This document shows positions 16,510 through 64,000 of a stretch of DNA of 64,000 nucleotides, piece by piece. A program made the position numbers and the translations under genes. Under the pieces are notes generated by a model. The model saw only the letters and a list, made by a program, of their open reading frames with translations, searched no databases and was not told the origin of the DNA. Numbering within the stretch: position 1 is the first letter of the stretch; each line of letters starts with the position of its first letter. The stretch is from Oegoconia quadripuncta (taxonomy: Eukaryota > Arthropoda > Insecta > Lepidoptera > Autostichidae). The stretch lies in the NCBI GenBank assembly GCA_949316235.1, contig OX438741.1, positions 20,089,124 to 20,153,123 of the forward strand. Direction: 5' to 3'.

Positions 16510-16632
16510 GCAATTTATTTTCGATTAGCGAAGTTAAGCAATTAGTCCTTGGATGGGTGACCACTAGTGGCATTTTAATGTGTGTGTTTCCATACTGCGG
16601 AGGGCACGTAAATAGTCTATCCCGGTGGTTTT
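16510..16632 (+). repeat. 5S-rRNA-derived SINE, part 1 (split by copia)
   Basis: 'tcgattagcgaagttaagca' and 'ccttggatgggtgaccact' match the 3' half of 5S rRNA, including the internal promoter region. The body continues to 'ctatcccggtggtttt' at 16632. It resumes after the copia element at 23000 ('gttttcaattgaagatagtcg'), with GTTTT duplicated by the insertion. Confidence 0.85.
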
Positions 16633-16772
16633 TGTTGTAATAATGTATTTGGCCACTGCTTTCTGCAGATTATTCCTTTTTAGTAATCAAAAAGATCTGA
16701 CGTGTTCTACTTACTTCAAAATAAATGTCTAATGTGAAAACATTTCTATTGCCTATTTTTAATATTTTAACA
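16633..16772 (+). repeat. Copia left LTR (140 bp)
   Basis: Starts TGTTGTAATAATG, ends AATATTTTAACA. No difference from the right LTR was found reading base by base. Contains 'aaaataaatg' at about 16719, a possible polyadenylation signal. No clear TATA box. Confidence 0.95.
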
Positions 16773-16786
16773 CGTTATCAGCACGA
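16773..16786 (+). promoter_or_regulatory. Primer-binding site, tRNA-Ile anticodon arm (half-tRNA type)
   Basis: CGTTATCAGCACGA directly abuts the LTR end. Its complement matches positions ~27-40 of eukaryotic tRNA-Ile(AAU): the 5' anticodon stem TCGTG, loop CTAATAA, then CG. The single mismatch is C facing A34, which is inosine in mature cytosolic tRNA-Ile and pairs with C. Copia uses the corresponding stretch of initiator tRNA-Met as a half-tRNA primer. The same geometry with a different tRNA is inferred here. Confidence 0.75.
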
Positions 16787-16847
16787 GTAAGCTCTGTTAT
16801 TTATTTTAGTTGGCATAGTTTTGTGTTTTATTATATTTAGACAAATA

Positions 16848-17782
16848 ATGGAAGTCAATAGTCGGAATTTTGGATTTTCAAATATAGCCCTGTCAAGTCG
16901 TGAAGGATACGGGATATGGAAATTCAAAATACGTATGTGTCTTATATATGAAGAACTGTGGGATTGTGTTGTGGGATATCCTGTAGGTGATGATACTTCG
17001 AAATTAGTAAAAGATAGAAAAGATCAGAAAGCCTTGTCGAAAATCTGTCTAACTTTAGACGGTGCTGCGGTTACACATGTTAGACGAGCAAAAACAGCCA
17101 AGGAAGCTTGGGACGCTCTTGCTGCAGCTTATGAAGATAAAGGTATGGGTCGACGCTTAGCCCTGGAACGTAAACTATACAGGTACTCACTTTCTGATTT
17201 TGATAATATTGAATGTTACATTGATGCCATAATGTGCACTTACCAAGAACTAGCTGATATTGGTAAAGTGATTGAGGATGAATCATTAGCTGCAATCCTT
17301 TTGGGAGGCTTAACACCTCGATTTGATCCGTTGGTGATGTCACTCGAGAACTCGAATGTAAATATTACCAGTGATTTAGTAAAGTCCAAATTATTAAATG
17401 AGCTATCTAAAGGTAAGTCTACTGAGCCAGGAGCTGCCTTACGGAGTAGATATGTTGAGAAACAGAAACCTTGTAGTTCAAAACCTAAAAATGCTGTAGT
17501 ATGTTATACATGTAATGAGCCGGGACATAAAAGCCCTCAGTGTCCATTAAGAAAGAATAAGAAGGGAAAGTCAGTTGCTACTAAGCAAACTAAAGAGGAT
17601 TCTACCCTTATAGCTGCACTGAATGCTGATACACATAGCAATGATGTTAGGAGTAATAGTTGGTTTGTAGACTCCGGTGCTACCACTCATATGACTTCTC
17701 AGTTGGATTGGCTGCAAAATACTATACCATTTGAATGTGGAAGAGTGACTGTAGCTAATGGAGAAATTTTAGAAAGTAAATA
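16848..17782 (+). pseudogene. Copia gag and protease, 5' part of gag-pol interrupted by transposon
   Basis: I chose the ATG at 16848 (MEVNSRNFGF...). The frame extends upstream to 16821 without another ATG. The product begins with a copia-type Gag (UBN2-like; 'GYGIWKFKIRMCLIYEELW' at about residues 22-40, 'AKTAKEAWDALAAAYED' at about 80-96). A zinc knuckle C-x2-C-x4-H-x4-C follows (CYTCNEPGHKSPQC, 17502-17543, first Cys codon 219). The aspartic protease active site is WFVDSGATTHM, with the catalytic Asp codon at 17670. The frame then enters the inverted repeat of the nested transposon at 17785 and stops in it at 17828. With the transposon and one TA removed, the frame runs on into 19744. Confidence 0.9.
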
Positions 17783-17784
17783 TA

Positions 17785-18035
17785 CAGTGTGGAAATTAAA
17801 CTCAGGCCCTGGAGGGAAACTACTTTAAATCCTTAAGCTAGCTCATTTTATTTAAAGGAGACATTCCTTTATTTTTAAAAAGAAACAAATCTGCATTAAA
17901 AGATTTTTTAAAACTCGCTTGCTTCGCCCGGGACTCGAACCGACTAAAATTTAAAAAAATAAACACTCTTTATTTTATTGTACTAATCGGTAGTATTAAT
18001 ATTCAGGATAAAGTTTCTCTAACAAACATTTGGTC
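17785..18035 (+). repeat. Left terminal inverted repeat of nested transposon
   Basis: Pairs with 19493-19741. On the complement it carries 'GGTTCGAGTCCCGGGCGAAG' (about 17923-17942), which fits the tRNA B-box consensus GGTTCGANTCC. Confidence 0.92.
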
Positions 18036-18107
18036 TTAAAAATAAAAATAATCGTTAAATCTAACATCAACTTTATTTTACTATCCATTTTGTAACACTT
18101 AAATTAT

Positions 18108-19169
18108 TTAACTGATAAATTGTTCGAAATGAGCCCCGTCGTTCCGGCTACACAACATTAGTCGCCGTTGAAATTCATTTCTTGTAGCCTTCAGCAAAGT
18201 GTTGTGGTGTATGCCCCTAATAACATTTTCTACCGCAATCCTTAGCTCTTGAACGGTTTCATAGCAAGTTTCATAAACAACATTTTTTACATGACCCCAT
18301 AAAAAGAAGTCCATGGGCGTCAGGTCTGGACTTCTTGCAGGCCATCTAATCGTACCGTTTGTACCTATCCAGGCACTGAAATTTTCATTAAGGTATGCCC
18401 TGGCAATTCTGCTGTTGTGGGCAGGTGCACCATCTTGTTGAAAAATGATATTATTTCGTTCCTCTTCTGGCAGAAGGTTTAATTGATTTTGTAAAAGCTC
18501 TAATATTTCAATGTATTTTGCTGCATTCAGATGTCCTTCGTAAATGTGCACCAAAACAACCTTGTTACTTTTGATTCCACACCAAACATTAAACGAAAAT
18601 CTGACCTGGTTGTTCGTTTCACGGACACGGAATGGATTTTGACGAGACCAATAATGATTGTTATGTCTGTTATACATTCCATTATTACTAAAATTTGTTT
18701 CGTCAGACCATACAATACAGTCCAAGAAATTTGGGTTGCGGGCTATTTCTGTTCGAATATTTTCACAAAACTGTAATCTCCTGTCACTATCTCCGGGATG
18801 TAGTTTCTGCACCAATCGCCCATCACGATAACATTTGTATTTGTATTTTTTCAGAACTTTAAGTATACTAGTATGGTTGATGCCTATCTCTTGAACAGCT
18901 TCCCTGCTTGAAGCTTTCGGGTAACACTCGAAGTATGTCAAAATGTTTAACTCAACATCGCTATAGTCCAAATTTTGTTGCTGTGGGCGTCCAGTCTTCT
19001 TTTTAAAACTTCCAACGGTCAGTAAATTATTCACAATTCGAGACAAAACCTTTCTAGATGGTAGTTCTCTGTCTGGATACTTCTCGCGATACCACTGTAG
19101 AGCTAAATCGTAGCTCTTGTTGCAAACAAAGTAAGCTTCTAATAAATCGAATTGTTCTTGATACGCCAT
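18108..19169 (-). CDS. Transposase, DUF4817-type Tc1/mariner superfamily, intact 353 aa
   Basis: Starts at ATG 19167-19169 (MAYQEQFDLLEAYFVCNKSY) with no upstream ATG in frame before the inverted repeat. It ends 'GAHFEQFIS'. The head (residues 1-60) is DUF4817-like ('ALQWYREKYPDRELPSRKVL'). An HTH with 'SSREAVQEIGINHTSILKVL' follows at about 90-110. The catalytic Asp are D156 (IVWSDETNF), D246 (FQQDGAPAH) and D287 (SPDLTPMDFFLWGH), again with 40 residues between the last two, as in the enzyme at 1-1082. The two share architecture but differ widely in sequence. It would bind the element's inverted repeats and move it into TA sites. All catalytic residues are present, with no frameshift. Confidence 0.93.
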   Translation of the reverse strand: MAYQEQFDLLEAYFVCNKSYDLALQWYREKYPDRELPSRKVLSRIVNNLLTVGSFKKKTGRPQQQNLDYSDVELNILTYFECYPKASSREAVQEIGINHTSILKVLKKYKYKCYRDGRLVQKLHPGDSDRRLQFCENIRTEIARNPNFLDCIVWSDETNFSNNGMYNRHNNHYWSRQNPFRVRETNNQVRFSFNVWCGIKSNKVVLVHIYEGHLNAAKYIEILELLQNQLNLLPEEERNNIIFQQDGAPAHNSRIARAYLNENFSAWIGTNGTIRWPARSPDLTPMDFFLWGHVKNVVYETCYETVQELRIAVENVIRGIHHNTLLKATRNEFQRRLMLCSRNDGAHFEQFIS

Positions 19170-19492
19170 TATGAGATAATTTAATTACGTAAGGGAAGCA
19201 ACACTACTTAAATAAAATCTGTTGATAAAAATCGTTCGAATTTTAAAATTATTGTCCCGCCTTGCAAACAAAGTCAAACGTTCCATTTTTAAACTTCTCC
19301 ACTGAACGCCTCGGATCATGTAAGAAGGAAATGTGCATAGAGGTATTACCACCATTGAACAATTTTCTTATCGATGATTTCAACAAGGTACTTAACGATA
19401 AATTAGCAAGCGTGTACTTCATACGAAGTCTTTGAGTGTTGGAGAAATAACAGAACTGTTACGTGTCTTTTACTTGTTAAAAGTGAACAGTA

Positions 19493-19741
19493 ACCAAATA
19501 TTTTTTAGAGAAACTTTATCCTGAATATTAATACTACCGAGTAGTATAATAAAATAAGGAGTGTTTATTTTTTAAATTTTAGTTGGTTCGAGTCCCGGGC
19601 GAAGCAAGCGAGTTTTAAAAAATCTTTTAATGCAGATTTGTTTCTTTTTAAAAATAAAGGAATGTCTCCTTTAAGTAAAATGAGCTAGCTTAAGGATTTA
19701 AAGTAGTTTCCCTCCAGGGCCTGAGTTTAATTTCCACACTG
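19493..19741 (-). repeat. Right terminal inverted repeat of nested transposon
   Basis: Complement of 17785-18035 with about half a dozen mismatches and small indels. The B-box-like block is read on the plus strand at about 19582-19601 ('GGTTCGAGTCCCGGGCGAAG'). Confidence 0.92.
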
Positions 19742-19743
19742 TA

Positions 19744-22245
19744 TAGGTGATATTTCAATTTCAACTAAGTCAGATGTAGTTAAAACTATAAAAGACGTTG
19801 TTTATATACCTCATTTACAATCTAATTTAATTTCTGTTATTAAGGCTGTTCAAAGTGGTTTTACTGTAGTTTTTTGATAAAAACGGTTGTAATTTTTATA
19901 AAAGTGTTGATTTTTCATATACAGGTAATTCTGTTCTACATGCTTCTGAAAATGGTGGACTGTACTCTTTAAACTGTACTACAAATCCGTCTCATTTGTC
20001 AGCTTCTGTTGTGCACTTTGACGAGATCTATGAGTATCGTATTTGGCATAAACGCCTAGGGCATTTATGTCGTATAGGAATGCAGAATTTGATTAAAGGC
20101 AATGCTACCGGCATAACGTTCAAGAAAGTAGACAAGGAGCCATGTGTCGCTTGCATTGAAGGTAAGCAGTCTAGAAAACCTTTTAAAACAGTTCCCTACA
20201 AGAAGGCCACATCTATGCTAGAGCTAGTTCATTCTGACTTAGCAGGCCCGATGTCATGCTCTTCTTTTCAAGGAAATAAATATGTTTTATATTTAATTGA
20301 CGATTATTCTAGAATGGTTTTTGTTTACTTTGTTGAGTCTAAAAGTGACGTTAAAAATAAATTTTGTGAGTTTGTAACTTTAGTAGAAAGACAGACCGGA
20401 GCACAAACTAAAACACTACGATCTGATAATGGTACCGAATTTGTTAATAAAAGTATGAATGACTTTTTGGTTTCCAAGGGTATTGTTCATCAGACAATTG
20501 TACCTTATTGTCAACAGCAGAATGGGATAGCCGAGCGTACTGGTCGTTCAATAATGGAGAAAGCACGTGCTTTACTTGCTGAAAGTTCTTTGTCAAAGGC
20601 TTTCTGGCAAGATGCTATAATGTGTGCTGTCTATCTAAAAAATAGGTCTCCACATAGGTCTTTACATTGTGTGACTCCTTTCCAAAAATGGTATAATGAA
20701 ATACCAAATTTGGCGCATCTTAAAGTGTTCGGATGTAGGGCACTTGTACATGTACCATCGTGTAATAGGAAGAAGTTGGATGTTAAAGCTACTCAACATA
20801 TTTTTGTTGGTTATAGTGATGATCCACATGGCTACTTTTTTCGTGAGGTACATAATCCGAGAAGTTTAACAAAGGCGAGAGATGTTACTTTTTTTGAAGA
20901 TTGCTTTTCTGATCTGAAAGCTAATTCTGAAAAGAATGTACAATTTTCCGTGCCAACCCTAATGTTATCTGATAATTTGACAGATGTTGCTGTGGAGCCT
21001 TCTGTAGTCGTAAGTTCAACAGACGACATACAAAGTCCTTTGATAACGACTAAGCAACTCGTTCGTAATAATACTGACGCAGATAATTTATTCATGTCCT
21101 GTCCACTAAGGGGAGAAGAAAGTCCTAGGGTTGAACCAGTGTTGGAAGCTGAAAGAAGATATCCTTCCAGAACTAGGTATCCTCCAAACTACTTTTCCTA
21201 TTTAGTTTCTGAAGAGACGAAAGAACCGAATAGTTATGTTGAGGCTATTAACTCTGACAACGCTGAAGAGTGGCAATTAGCTATGCAGAACGAGTTCGAT
21301 TCCCTTCAAAAACTTAAAACTTGGGATTTAGTGGACAGACCAAATAAAAAGGTCATTCCATGCAAATGGGTATACAGGATGAAGACCGATGAGCAAGGCA
21401 GTGTTGTCAAGTTTAAAGCTAGACTCGTTGTCAAAGGTTTCAATCAAATAGCAGGCGTTGATTACAATGAAACCTTTGCGCCTGTAGTCAGAAATTCATC
21501 CTTACGTACCTTATTTGCTTTAGCGGCAGAGCAAGACCTTAAAATGCGACACTTAGATGTTGACACAGCTTTCTTAAATGGAGACCTTACGGAGGAAGTC
21601 TATATGGACCAGCCTAAGGGGTTTGTTGAGGAAGGTCAACAAAACAAAGTGTGTTTGCTACGTAAGTCTTTATATGGACTTAAGCAAGCTCCCAGAGCTT
21701 GGTATACAAAGTTGAATGAAACTTTGTCTAGTATAGGTTTTGTGAGAACTCCATCAGAACCTTGTGTTTATAAAAAAGATTTTAATACAGAAACAGTCAT
21801 TCTCTGTGTCTATGTTGATGACATAATAATATTTTTTAAATCTGATAGATCTTTTGACATTGTCAAAAATTCTTTACAAAAATATTTTAGCCTAAAAGAC
21901 TTAGGAGAACTAAAATATTATCTTGGTTTAAATATCTCGCGTAGTAACAGTGAAATACGTATTAACCAGGTAACTTATATTCACCGCTTACTAAAAATTT
22001 TCGATCTACAGAATTGTAAAGAATACAATACACCGCTGGCGAATAGTAAGCTGGTTGATGGCGAAGAACGTGGTGAGTATCCATACCAAAATTTAATTGG
22101 TTGTTTAATGTTCTTATCAGTAAACACTCGTCCTGATATAGCATTCGCTACCAGTTACTTGAGTCAGTTTAACACCAAGTACGATAGGACTCATTGGATT
22201 GCTGCCAAAAGAGTTCTCCAATATGTAAAGCGTACTGTAGATTAA
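19744..22245 (+). pseudogene. Copia pol: integrase and reverse transcriptase, with frameshift and premature stop
   Basis: Resumes directly after the transposon's TA with the end of protease ('DVVYIPHLQSNLISV'). A run of six T at 19870-19875 gives a +1 shift; five would keep frame with what follows. Integrase then has the His/Cys head ('WHKRLGHL', 'CVACIEGK') and D-D-E residues in 'LVHSDLAGPM', 'TLRSDNGTEF' and 'QQNGIAERTGR'. The RVT_2 reverse transcriptase runs from 'EWQLAMQNEFDSL' through 'FKARLVVKGFNQ' and 'LDVDTAFLNGDL' to the catalytic YVDD at 21811-21822. An in-frame TAA at 22243-22245 breaks the chain before RNase H. Core motifs are otherwise intact, so the damage looks recent. A homopolymer sequencing error at the T run is possible. 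Confidence 0.93.
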
Positions 22246-22737
22246 TCTCTGGTTTATAGAAAAACTGGGCAACCTCTAGTGGGTTTTGCTGATGCAGACT
22301 GGGCGAACTGCTGTAAAGACCGTCGGTCTTATACGGGCTACTTTTTCAAGCTGGCTAGCGGTCCTGTTTCCTGGTCTTCCAGAAAGCAACCTACAGTTGC
22401 TTTATCTTCGGCCGAAGCTGAGTATATGGCTTTAACAGATGCTACGAAGGAAGCTGTATATCTTCGACGCTTAATTTGTGAGATTTCCGGTAAGAGTACT
22501 GTTTGTATTACTATACACAGCGATAGTCAAAGTGCTCAAAGTTTGGCTACGAATCCAGTTTTTCATAATAGAACCAAGCACATAGATACGAAATACCATT
22601 ATATTAGAGAAAAAATATTAGAAAACTTTGTTCAATTGAAGTATATTAATACAAGTGAAATGCCAGCTGACGTTCTAACTAAACCGTTAGGTCGCATTGC
22701 ACATGATAGGTGTGTTACCGATTTAGGTTTAGTATAG
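22246..22737 (+). pseudogene. Copia RNase H, separated from RT by one nonsense codon
   Basis: Same frame as the RT, directly after the TAA at 22243-22245, ending at TAG 22735-22737. Copia-type RNase HI: 'GFADADWANCCKDRRSYTG' (first Asp), 'ALSSAEAEYMAL' (Glu) and 'IHSDSQSAQSLA' (Asp), then 'RTKHIDTKYHYIREK' and 'PADVLTKPLGR'. No further break is seen. It has no start of its own and would be made only by read-through. Confidence 0.93.
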
Positions 22738-22850
22738 TTTTTGTGCTGAACTTTTTACTTTTTATTATTTTTTTTTTCTCACTCTATGTTTCTTATCTTT
22801 TGTTTGTTTCTCAGTATGCTAATTACACGTTTTGTAGATGTTCTTTGATT

Positions 22851-22857
22851 AAGGGGG
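22851..22857 (+). promoter_or_regulatory. Polypurine tract of copia
   Basis: AAGGGGG followed by CC and then the right LTR at 22860. This is the expected place for plus-strand priming. The two intervening C are slightly unusual. Confidence 0.6.
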
Positions 22858-22859
22858 CC

Positions 22860-22999
22860 TGTTGTAATAATGTATTTGGCCACTGCTTTCTGCAGATTAT
22901 TCCTTTTTAGTAATCAAAAAGATCTGACGTGTTCTACTTACTTCAAAATAAATGTCTAATGTGAAAACATTTCTATTGCCTATTTTTAATATTTTAACA
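22860..22999 (+). repeat. Copia right LTR (140 bp)
   Basis: Identical to 16633-16772 by base-by-base reading. Followed by the target duplication GTTTT. Confidence 0.95.
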
Positions 23000-23090
23000 G
23001 TTTTCAATTGAAGATAGTCGTTAAGCCAAGTCGTGGCCTACAGCGCATTAAAAGCGGAGGACCCAGTGGTGGATTATGTATGACCCATAC
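23000..23090 (+). repeat. 5S-rRNA-derived SINE, part 2
   Basis: Continuation of 16510-16632 after the copia insertion: 'agtcgttaagccaagtcgtgg', 'cctacagcgcatt', 'gtggtggattatg'. Confidence 0.8.
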
Positions 23091-57615: not shown

Positions 57616-57628
57616 ATTATCTGATATA

Positions 57629-58485
57629 CAGGGCGTCCCAAAGTTATGGGACATGAAGGGGAAGTACCTTAAATATCGTAGATAGTGAATTTTGCTCAAA
57701 GAAGACTTTATGTTATTTTTAAAAGTTAGTAATTCTGCATTCATAGATTTTCTAAAAATTATTTGCTTCGGCTGGGAATCGAACCGACTCAAATGTGAAA
57801 AAAAAAACACCCTACTTTTATGATGCCAATCGAAAGAATAGCTAAAAAATAATAACTCTGCCTAAGTAACATAGTATTTTAAAAGAAAGGAACAACGTGA
57901 AATTAATCATTTTAATCAAATAAAAAACATACATGAAACTGCCGTAGTCAATTAAGTAGGTATTTTTTTGTAAATTAATTAATTAAATGCTCAAAATGTG
58001 ATCCCTCTTGTCTTACGCAAATCGCCAATCTTTTAATGAGCCCGCTGCCTGTTGATTTTCTAATCATTTTATGGTGAACACTCGATGTGATATGGCACAA
58101 TTCTGTTTGCAACTTATTTACGAATAATCAATGCTATCTTTGGAATGATAATATCGCTACTTTTCGAACGTCGTCGGCAATAAATAACTTTCTTGAAATT
58201 TGACTCAATCATTTTATGTTGTTCCTTTCTTTTAAAATACTATGTTACTTAGGCAGAGTTATTATTTTTTAGCTATTCTTTCGATTGGCATCATAAAAGT
58301 AGGGTGTTTTTTTTTTCACATTTAAGTCGGTTCGATTCCCAGCCGAAGCAAGTAATTTTTAGAAAATCTATGAATGCAGAATTACTAACTTTTAAAAATA
58401 ACATAAAGTCTTCTTTGAGCAAAATTCACTATCTACAATATTTAAGGTACTTCCCCTTCATGTCCCATAACTTTGGGACGCCCTG
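57629..58485 (-). mobile_element. Internally deleted relative of the nested transposon, ~267-bp inverted repeats
   Basis: 857 bp starting CAGGGCGTCCCAAAGTTATG and ending with its complement, between TA at 57627-57628 and 58486-58487. The arms run to about 57895 and from about 58219. They align with the arms of 17785-19741 in their inner half, including 'GGTTCGATTCCC' and 'CGAAGCAAG', but the outer ends differ. The centre keeps only a transposase C-terminus. Confidence 0.88.
57975..58130 (-). pseudogene. Transposase C-terminal remnant
   Basis: The minus strand reads '...LIKRLAICVRQEGSHFEHLI', then Asn-stop (stop at 57975-57977). This matches the last ~45 residues of the DUF4817-type transposases (compare 'GAHFEQFIS' at 18108 and 'GHFENIIN' at 1). 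No catalytic residue remains. Confidence 0.75.
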
Positions 58486-59244
58486 TATTATAGCAAAATG
58501 TTATTGTGCTACACAATGTTTTATGACGTTACATAACTAATTGTATATTTATAGATAATTATTATTAATAATTTTAAGTGTTCAGAAGTAAACCAAGCGT
58601 TTGTCGCAGAATTTCTGATTACGACCAGCACTGGAAGTTTAATTTCGAGGCAGGTTGTTTGGACCATTCGTTCACATTAGCGGGCCCAGAGACAAATTAA
58701 CAGATTTATAGCTTTTTATACGGCAGCTTAACCATTGTTCTGATTTTGTTTTAGGATTAAGTGCCTTCTGTCACAAGGTTGGTGAGGATTATGGATTCGA
58801 ACCAATAGGGCATTCTCGGACAACATAGATATATCTCACATGTATTAAAACTATTTGGTTCTTTTATAATAGGCCATTACACATTATTTTAAATATGTTT
58901 TTTCTACTCTTCCTTTTATATCTGTCAGATTGTGTGTTTACCTTTACTCTTTTATCTTACTTCTTGTCAGTCCGTTGTACTTATGAAATATATCACAATA
59001 CGCTAACCATTGTGTTCCTCATTATTAAACAGGAACATGCACGTCTAATCCGTATAATTACCCGGGCCCAGTTACGAATTTAATTACAAGCTTTTTATTT
59101 GCCGACTACAGCCAAAAGGAAGGTAATGTATTCAACACGTCTGTATATATGTATGATAAATGCCTAAGCGAATTTGAACAAATGAGATGTCGTTAGATTC
59201 AAAGGTCATCATCATAAGTCCAATAAGCCGCCCCTGCAGCCAAA
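58486..59244. other. Unassigned AT-rich sequence
   Basis: No gene or known repeat recognised. Confidence 0.3.
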
Positions 59245-62942: not shown

Positions 62943-64000
62943 TTAAAATCCTGCAGAACTGCCATCACTACGAGGGTCAAAAGCTCCCTCCATCATTCCA
63001 TTTGGGTGCCTTACTACAGCACCAGCTTGGCCCACCATCGAACTAAACGCCTCCAAGATGACTATGTCGTGGCCTCTGTCTTTTAAATACTTAACTGTCT
63101 CTTCAGAAAATCTATCTTCCAATCTCAATAAGTTATCCGTACCTTGTGTTTGACGACCAAACACCCATCTCGGGCTTGTTAATGATTTCTGCAAATTTAA
63201 ATCTTGGACAACATATCTGTGGAATATTGCTGCTCCAGTTTGAGGTTGACCGTCACCTCCTTGTGATCCATATATCATAAATCTATCATCATTCAATCGA
63301 GCTGCACCCGGGCTCAGAGTATGGAATGGTTTTTTCCCAGGTTTGAGGGAGAGCAATTGATTTTTGTCCAAAGTAAACGCTGTACCTCTATTCTGCCATA
63401 AAATCCCTGACTTTGGTAAAACGACTCCGCTACCAAATTCAACATAGATGCTTTGTATAAACGATACAGAAAATCCATTGCTATCCATTACTCCTAGCCA
63501 AACAGTATCAGCATTACCCTTTCCTTGTCCAAAAGAAGCTGCTCTATCGAAACTGATATTTTGCGCCATTCTTGCAATATATCGATCAGATAGTAATGAC
63601 TGAGCATCGACTTTCATATATAAAGGATCTGTTATGTATTGGTCTCGTAAAATAAAAGCTTGCTTCGTCGCCTCAACTGCTGTGTGAATGAATTTTCCTT
63701 CATCTTTACCGTCAATCTCTAATTTATCTAAGATTCCAAGAATACTCAATGATACCGCACCTTGAGTAGGGGGTGGCGTATTAAAAACAATGCCATGACT
63801 ATGTACCAATTTTAAAGGAGCTTTTCTAACTGCAGAATAATTTTCCAGGTCAGACTTTGTGATTGGCATACCTAGTGATCTAAAGTCTTCTGCTATTATC
63901 TGTGCTAATTCGCCATAGTAAAAATTACTCAAGCCATTTACAGCTAAATGTTTTAGCGTATTGGCCAGTGTTTTTTGATAAAATCTTTGACCTATGATTG
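62943..64000 (-). CDS. YwrD/HpxW-like gamma-glutamyltransferase-family protein (5' partial)
   Basis: Open from the window edge to TAA at 62943-62945: 351 codons, about two-thirds of the ~520-530 residues usual for bacterial relatives. The frame upstream of 63932 is also open ('GQRFYQKTLANTLKHLAVNG'), so the start lies outside. These Ntn hydrolases self-cleave before a Thr that becomes the N-terminal nucleophile of the small subunit. That Thr is most likely in 'NADTVWLGVMDSNG' (codon 63504-63506), followed by 'VSFIQSIYVEFGSG', which leaves a ~187-residue small subunit. 'HTLSPGAARLNDDRFMIYGS' and 'QGGDGQPQTGAAIF' are the substrate-side loops, and the terminus 'GAFDPRSDGSSAGF' is complete. Substrate is unknown (glutathione-type or oxamate-type amide). 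No intron in 1058 bp. The motif set is closer to bacterial YwrD/HpxW than to animal GGT1. Confidence 0.9.
   Translation of the reverse strand, partial: IIGQRFYQKTLANTLKHLAVNGLSNFYYGELAQIIAEDFRSLGMPITKSDLENYSAVRKAPLKLVHSHGIVFNTPPPTQGAVSLSILGILDKLEIDGKDEGKFIHTAVEATKQAFILRDQYITDPLYMKVDAQSLLSDRYIARMAQNISFDRAASFGQGKGNADTVWLGVMDSNGFSVSFIQSIYVEFGSGVVLPKSGILWQNRGTAFTLDKNQLLSLKPGKKPFHTLSPGAARLNDDRFMIYGSQGGDGQPQTGAAIFHRYVVQDLNLQKSLTSPRWVFGRQTQGTDNLLRLEDRFSEETVKYLKDRGHDIVILEAFSSMVGQAGAVVRHPNGMMEGAFDPRSDGSSAGF

What the first reader, a model, noticed from the sequence alone, without database searches (positions are those of the whole stretch)
16773..16786. Copia primer site fits the anticodon arm of tRNA-Ile with C opposite inosine-34
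CGTTATCAGCACGA immediately follows the LTR. It complements tRNA-Ile(AAU) positions ~27-40 at every base if A34 is read as inosine. Drosophila copia is known to prime from the matching half of initiator tRNA-Met. A half-tRNA-Ile primer, with the element's DNA recording the A-to-I edit of the tRNA, would be a neat molecular signature: the plus strand is copied from the tRNA, so inosine templates C.
Basis: partly seen in the sequence, partly recalled or inferred. Interest (0 to 1): 0.78.

Follow-up and report, generated by a model that had tools for sequence, protein, structure and literature searches.

The report
Moth copia primed by half tRNA-Ile
A jumping gene in a moth or butterfly genome appears to start copying itself from half of an isoleucine tRNA, and its DNA fits the chemically edited form of that tRNA rather than the tRNA gene; the same trick was already reported in plants.

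Summary
CGTTATCAGCACGA (16773-16786) directly follows the 5' LTR of a Ty1/copia element (identical 140-nt LTRs, target duplication GTTTT). It pairs with nucleotides 40-27 of the host's tRNA-Ile(AAU), with C opposite A34, inosine in the mature tRNA. The 8 tRNA-Ile arms found by exact pattern all encode A34, none G34. Of 80 genomic sites read, 75 are LTR-type and all 75 have C, in about five families with gag 56-64% identical. The one genome-wide non-C site next to CA shows no copia.

Nine of 20 other copia gag hits sampled carry a half-initiator-Met site (at most 1 mismatch), and one such family is nearest in a gag tree (UFBoot 76), so a primer switch from iMet to Ile is plausible. Half-Ile sites end at tRNA nucleotide 27, before G26; this suggests that m2,2G26 ends plus-strand copying, which would also write C from inosine. 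That is inferred.

The principle is known: plant Bianca elements match edited half-tRNA-Ile (PMC6317226) and a rust copia uses the tRNA-Ile anticodon loop (PMC10886601). I saw no animal case in the papers searched.

The parts
16628..16632 (.). 5-bp target site duplication GTTTT (left copy)
   Evidence: same word at 23000-23004
16633..16772 (+). 5' LTR, 140 nt, TGTTG...TAACA
   Evidence: 100% identical to 22860-22999
16773..16786 (+). primer binding site complementary to tRNA-Ile(IAU) nt 40 to 27; C at 16779 opposite position 34
   Evidence: same 14 nt in 12 of 12 window-family copies read, the window's own included
16848..17828 (+). gag reading frame (Retrotran_gag_2, zf-CCHC, Pol_BBD); its last part runs into the inserted transposon
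17781..19745 (.). DNA transposon with long terminal inverted repeats inserted in the copia coding region; transposase ORF 18108-19169 minus (DUF4817, DDE_3)
   Evidence: limits taken from the inverted-repeat arms
19996..22245 (+). pol part: gag_pre-integrs, rve integrase, SH3, RVT_2 reverse transcriptase
22279..22737 (+). downstream open frame (152 aa) in the RNase H position; no Pfam match
   Evidence: RNase H role inferred from position
22850..22859 (+). polypurine tract TAAGGGGGCC directly before the 3' LTR
   Evidence: by position and composition
22860..22999 (+). 3' LTR, 140 nt
23000..23004 (.). target site duplication GTTTT (right copy)

Best explanation
The site is the minus-strand primer binding site of a lepidopteran Ty1/copia (hemivirus-type) element that primes from the 5' half of cytosolic tRNA-Ile(IAU) cut after nucleotide 40. 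The 14 nt pair with nucleotides 40-27, with C opposite inosine-34. When the plus strand is made, reverse transcriptase copies the attached half-tRNA from 40 to 27, adds C opposite inosine, and stops at m2,2G26, so each cycle can rewrite a 14-nt site bearing C. The lineage probably arose from half-initiator-Met elements by a primer switch; the two half-tRNAs share nucleotides 35-39 (AUAAC). Shown: the site, the tRNA genes, C in all 75 LTR-type sites read, the spread over families. Inferred: I34 in this host, cleavage of the tRNA, copying of inosine, the stop at 26, the direction of the switch. The confidence given is for primer identity and pairing with I34; for the copying and stop steps I would say about 0.6.
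For: tRNA-Ile genes: 8 of 8 arms found by exact pattern are tRNA-Ile(AAT) with A34 and G26:A44; none has G34. C at the wobble base in 75 of 75 LTR-type sites among 80 read of the 100 listed. Five family representatives with gag 56-64% identical share all 14 nt, and agreement drops to 3 of 5 at nt 15. A distant copia element, probably from a fern (L047; pol 27% identical), has the same AACA/CGTTATCAGCACGA junction. Half-iMet sites exist in the same genome: CAGGTTATGGGCCCAG 117 times, control 0; 2 of 6 iMet arms read are tRNA-Met(CAT) genes. Published, passages seen: hemivirus cDNA starts at the 3'-OH of nt 40 (PMC1181622); [quoted passage not shown] m2,2G26 stops reverse transcriptase at residue 27 and is in most G26:A44 eukaryotic tRNAs (PMC7704012).
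Against: No cDNA or tRNA-half data. The sites are not independent: 61 of the 80 read are family B, and the families group together in the gag tree. A control PBS position is as invariant as the wobble base (0 variants), so constancy of C alone does not prove rewriting. The end at nt 27 is also the start of the anticodon stem, so limits on annealing could explain it. Among 9 half-iMet sites with at most 1 mismatch, one (L159) has C at nt 15 and would pair on into nt 26. PMC7704012 shows m2,2G26 for Drosophila tRNA-Tyr, not for moth tRNA-Ile. The split that sets the half-Ile families apart has only UFBoot 76. L047 shows only one LTR end; no second LTR is on the contig.
Confidence: 0.85

Rival explanations
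1. The primer is half tRNA-Ile(IAU), but C is kept only because I:C anneals best; it was fixed once and inherited, and the tRNA is not copied at this base. (Shares the primer identity of the best explanation; a rival only for the copying step.)
For: The control PBS position is as invariant as the wobble base; the families fall on one side of one split in the gag tree, so one ancestral change suffices.
Against: The same C stands in a distant, probably fern, element and in a plant small RNA that has the form of such a junction; in HIV-1 plus-strand strong-stop synthesis copies the attached primer tRNA (PMC13191261, passages).
Confidence: 0.25
2. Another RNA is the primer: a tRNA 3' end, a gene-encoded G34 tRNA-Ile, mitochondrial or bacterial tRNA-Ile(GAU), or self-priming from the LTR.
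For: C pairs perfectly with G34.
Against: No TGG at the site and no self-complementarity of 7 nt or more found in the LTR; 8 of 8 tRNA-Ile arms found have A34, none G34. The mitochondrial and bacterial tRNA-Ile(GAU) arms that I recall do not fit; these were not tested.
Confidence: 0.03
3. The match is chance.
For: One site alone is only 14 nt, and 28 of 100 window shuffles held a match within 2 mismatches.
Against: 182 against 6 in the reversed control; five families share the block, which ends where pairing with tRNA-Ile ends.
Confidence: 0.01

Closest known systems
Plant Bianca lineage of Ty1/copia (Neumann et al. 2019, PMC6317226; passages seen)
   Same: PBS complementary to edited half-tRNA-Ile; the authors note the A34-to-I change
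   Different: Plant lineage; in the passages seen the authors explain it by pairing, not by copying. No labelled Bianca sequence was at hand to compare.
Drosophila copia, Ty5 and other hemiviruses (PMC1181622; PMC5371799; passages)
   Same: Half-tRNA priming; cDNA start at nt 40
   Different: Copia (as recalled and in the finding) and Ty5 use initiator tRNA-Met; here tRNA-Ile with a wobble edit
Puccinia hordei Copia-18 and some fungal Helenus TRIMs (Kojima 2024, PMC10886601; passages)
   Different: Fungal; the base opposite position 34 was not visible in the text seen
GalEa-like copia of crustaceans (PMC3587641; passages)
   Same: Arthropod Ty1/copia elements
   Different: PBS complementary to the 3' end of tRNA-Met, not to an anticodon arm
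L047, copia element on a contig filed as an uncultured Trichormus MAG (probably Azolla fern DNA; inferred)
   Same: ...TAACA followed by the identical 14 nt, then a 1306-aa open frame
   Different: pol 27% identical; next base T instead of G/A; only one LTR end seen

Membership tests
Ty1/copia superfamily (Pseudoviridae) | integrase upstream of reverse transcriptase, copia-type gag | tested here: met
   rve then RVT_2 in 19996-22245; Retrotran_gag_2 in 16848-17828
Ty1/copia superfamily (Pseudoviridae) | TG...CA LTRs, 5-bp target duplication, PBS and polypurine tract at the internal ends | tested here: met
Hemivirus-type (half-tRNA priming) | PBS complementary to a tRNA anticodon arm from nt 40 | tested here: met
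   14 of 14 with inosine-34, 13 of 14 against the gene
Hemivirus-type (half-tRNA priming) | tRNA actually cleaved and extended | not testable with these tools
   needs cDNA/RNA from the host
Plant Bianca lineage | PBS complementary to edited half-tRNA-Ile | tested here: met
Plant Bianca lineage | groups with Bianca in RT/RH/INT phylogeny | tested here: inconclusive
   Nearest named RT relatives are from Choristoneura, a moth, but no labelled Bianca reference was available. Not filed as Bianca.

The most novel reading that the evidence does not exclude
Two tRNA modifications shape this PBS: inosine-34 dictates its C, and m2,2G26 sets its length by stopping plus-strand synthesis at nucleotide 27, as m1A58 does for the 18-nt site of full-length tRNA primers. 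The half-Ile lineage arose in insects by switching from half-iMet, independently of plants, which would make such PBSs a genomic readout of two modifications on the primer tRNA.
Probability: 0.5. Interest if true: 0.65.

Novelty: new member of a known kind. Interest (0 to 1): 0.48.

Why it matters
It extends edited half-tRNA-Ile priming, reported for plants, to an animal, and shows two half-tRNA primer classes side by side in one genome. The sharp 14-nt limit points to m2,2G26 as a possible half-tRNA counterpart of m1A58, testable by Trm1 knock-down in an insect cell line. PBS finders that use only tRNA 3' ends or unedited tRNA genes would miss or mismatch such sites.

Tried and rejected
A viral-contig scan with the PBS gave 38 stretches, none with its upstream end repeated downstream; two longer patterns gave 0. 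An RT search of viral contigs found no relative. A genome-contig scan (C or T allowed at the wobble base) gave 11 stretches, all with C; only L047 matches copia pol, the other 10 show no gag or pol match. Rfam gave no hit in the window or in the 5S-like flank. Literature searches for the letters of the site: one search listed 2 papers, of which I opened only the ice-plant one; one search listed 40, seen as listing only. No animal half-tRNA-Ile report was seen in searches (listings and selected passages; the library is open-access only). Yokozuna (Bombyx copia) was a recalled lead; its original paper was not seen.

Full report
WHAT IS THERE. The window lies in a 622.6-Mb assembly. Of 19 gag relatives found, the named ones are from Spodoptera, Manduca, Operophtera, Maniola and Choristoneura, so the host is taken to be a moth or butterfly. 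At 16633-22999 sits a Ty1/copia element: two identical 140-nt LTRs, TG...CA, target duplication GTTTT on both sides, gag with a zinc knuckle, integrase before reverse transcriptase, a polypurine tract, and a DDE_3-type DNA transposon inserted in its coding region. This copy is therefore interrupted.

THE SITE. CGTTATCAGCACGA follows the LTR with no gap. Its complement is TCGTGCTGATAACG. Eight tRNA-Ile arms found by an exact pattern with position 34 left open, all called tRNA-Ile(AAT) by ARAGORN, read TCGTGCTAATAACG at nt 27-40. The only difference is position 34: A in 8 of 8 genes, G in none. That A34 of tRNA-Ile becomes inosine is stated for plants in PMC6317226 and is general knowledge for eukaryotes; it was not measured in this host. 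The start at nt 40 agrees with the published statement that hemivirus cDNA begins at the 3'-OH of nt 40 (PMC1181622, passages).

C VERSUS T IN RELATIVES. CGTTATNAGCACGA occurs 182 times, reversed control 6; 100 places are listed: 95 C, 4 T, 1 G. I read 80 of these 100; 20 listed and the 82 unlisted were not read. Of the 80: 74 directly follow CA, all with C; 73 have a relative of the window gag downstream, all with C (one of them, on C9, follows CT). Together these are 75 LTR-type sites, 75 with C. The other five: two T sites are tRNA-Ile genes (L072; L111 is the gene of L096), two T sites and the G site have neither CA nor gag. For the unread places only the CA-anchored count is available: CACGTTATDAGCACGA occurs once in the genome, at a place with no copia match and no tRNA. 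CACGTTATCAGCACGA with up to one mismatch gave 173, without a breakdown; the 100 listed are exact. Of the window's own family, 12 of 12 copies read, the window's included, have the same 14 nt; the 7 loci whose left flank was printed have different flanking letters.

FAMILIES. By LTR end the sites fall into about five families (A, the window's; B, 61 of the 80; C; D; E), with gag 56-64% identical between representatives. Across these five representatives all 14 bases agree in 5 of 5, and agreement drops to 3 of 5 at the next base. In the 73 gag-bearing sites nt 15 is A (55) or G (18), never the C that would pair with G26.

OTHER PRIMERS IN THE SAME GENOME. From 150 scored gag hits (a capped number) I took the 320 nt upstream of 20, picked by hand for differing open-frame lengths, so the sample leans away from the half-Ile families already known. 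One is family B. GGTTATGGGCCCAG is present exactly in 6, with one mismatch in 3, with two in 1, three in 1. Six have 4-5 mismatches: L155 and L156, near copies of each other, look like the site with one base lost, and L157, L164, L168 and L169 begin GGTTAT, GGTTAA or GGTAAT. L158 and L163 (6 mismatches) show none. Four mismatches are also reached by chance: the half-Ile word does so in 2 of the 19 other stretches. So 9 of 20 are firm. CAGGTTATGGGCCCAG occurs 117 times, control 0 (places not read one by one). Six iMet arms occur; the two read are tRNA-Met(CAT) genes. By copies, CA-anchored half-Ile sites are the more numerous (up to 173 against 117), largely family B; by sampled families half-iMet is commoner.

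PRIMER SWITCH. A gag-domain tree of 25 sequences holds five half-Ile families, five half-iMet families and 15 of the 19 proteins; P0010, P0012, P0014, P0019 and the fern gag dropped out as too short or unmatched. Families A-E and seven proteins of unknown PBS (six named Lepidoptera, one unnamed) lie on one side of a split with UFBoot 76; the half-iMet family L162 is the nearest of the five on the other side, which also holds unnamed proteins of unknown PBS. The two PBSs share 8 of 14 positions, including bases 2-6, the complement of tRNA nt 39-35. A switch from iMet to Ile is the simplest reading; its direction rests on a moderate split.

WHY 14 NUCLEOTIDES. Half-Ile pairing ends at tRNA nt 27 in all five families. 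Of 9 half-iMet sites with at most one mismatch, 8 also end at 27; L159 has C at nt 15 and could pair further. In the 8 tRNA-Ile and 2 iMet genes read, nt 26 is G and nt 44 A. m2,2G26 is present in most G26:A44 eukaryotic tRNAs and stops reverse transcriptase at residue 27 (PMC7704012, passages; shown there for tRNA-Tyr of yeast and Drosophila). For full-length tRNA primers the 18-nt limit is attributed to m1A58 (PMC13191261, passages). By analogy, plus-strand synthesis over the half-tRNA would copy nt 40-27 and stop; inosine would be read with C, the most preferred partner (PMC10877575, passages). This explains both the C and the length. But the stem boundary at 27 offers another reason for the length, and preference for I:C annealing another for the C; constancy of C alone does not discriminate, because another PBS position tested is just as constant.

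BEYOND INSECTS. A scan of prokaryote genome contigs found ...TATAACA/CGTTATCAGCACGA in L047, on a contig filed under a Trichormus MAG, followed by an uninterrupted 1306-aa copia frame. No second LTR lies on the contig, so its LTR end is inferred. The host is probably the fern Azolla (recall that Trichormus is its symbiont). An ice-plant small RNA (mcr-miR6, PMC4977306) is the reverse complement of TTCAACACGTTATCAGCACGAA, the form of such a junction; no ice-plant element was seen.

NOVELTY. Neumann et al. 2019 (passages) report that plant Bianca elements carry PBSs complementary to post-transcriptionally edited half-tRNA-Ile. Kojima 2024 (passages) reports a rust-fungus copia using the tRNA-Ile anticodon loop. 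In my ten literature searches (listings and selected passages of an open-access library) I saw no animal half-tRNA-Ile case and no link of m2,2G26 to half-tRNA PBSs.

Noticed in passing
L062 (G000:C5:2594200-2596500): Tandem array of about 6.8 units of 174 nt, each the LTR of this family plus a short spacer that joins the first PBS bases to the polypurine-tract region; looks like an LTR-LTR mini-element turned into a small satellite.
   Followed up: partly
window 62943-63932 minus: Gamma-glutamyltranspeptidase / oxamate amidohydrolase-like gene (reaches near the window end); closest named relatives are many Lepidoptera, then Enterobacterales at 56-59% identity, suggesting an old bacterial gene transfer.
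   Followed up: partly
window 17781-19745: DDE_3/DUF4817 DNA transposon with 178-nt inverted repeats (99%) inserted in the copia coding region.
   Followed up: partly
window 16520-16575: Stretch resembling the 5S rRNA internal promoter (recalled likeness), just left of the insertion; perhaps a SINE3-type element hit by copia. Rfam gave no match.
   Followed up: partly
PMC4977306, mcr-miR6: A reported novel ice-plant microRNA is the reverse complement of a sequence of the form LTR end plus half-tRNA-Ile PBS, so it may be retrotransposon-derived siRNA.
   Followed up: partly
L047: A contig in a cyanobacterial MAG (Trichormus) carries eukaryotic-type copia DNA, i.e. probable contamination.
   Followed up: partly
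P0022, P0023, P0045: Choristoneura proteins named UDP-galactose 4'-epimerase isoforms carry a copia reverse transcriptase domain; probably a gene-model artefact.
   Followed up: no
window 57626-58488: 291-nt inverted repeat, 96% complementary, 281 nt apart.
   Followed up: no
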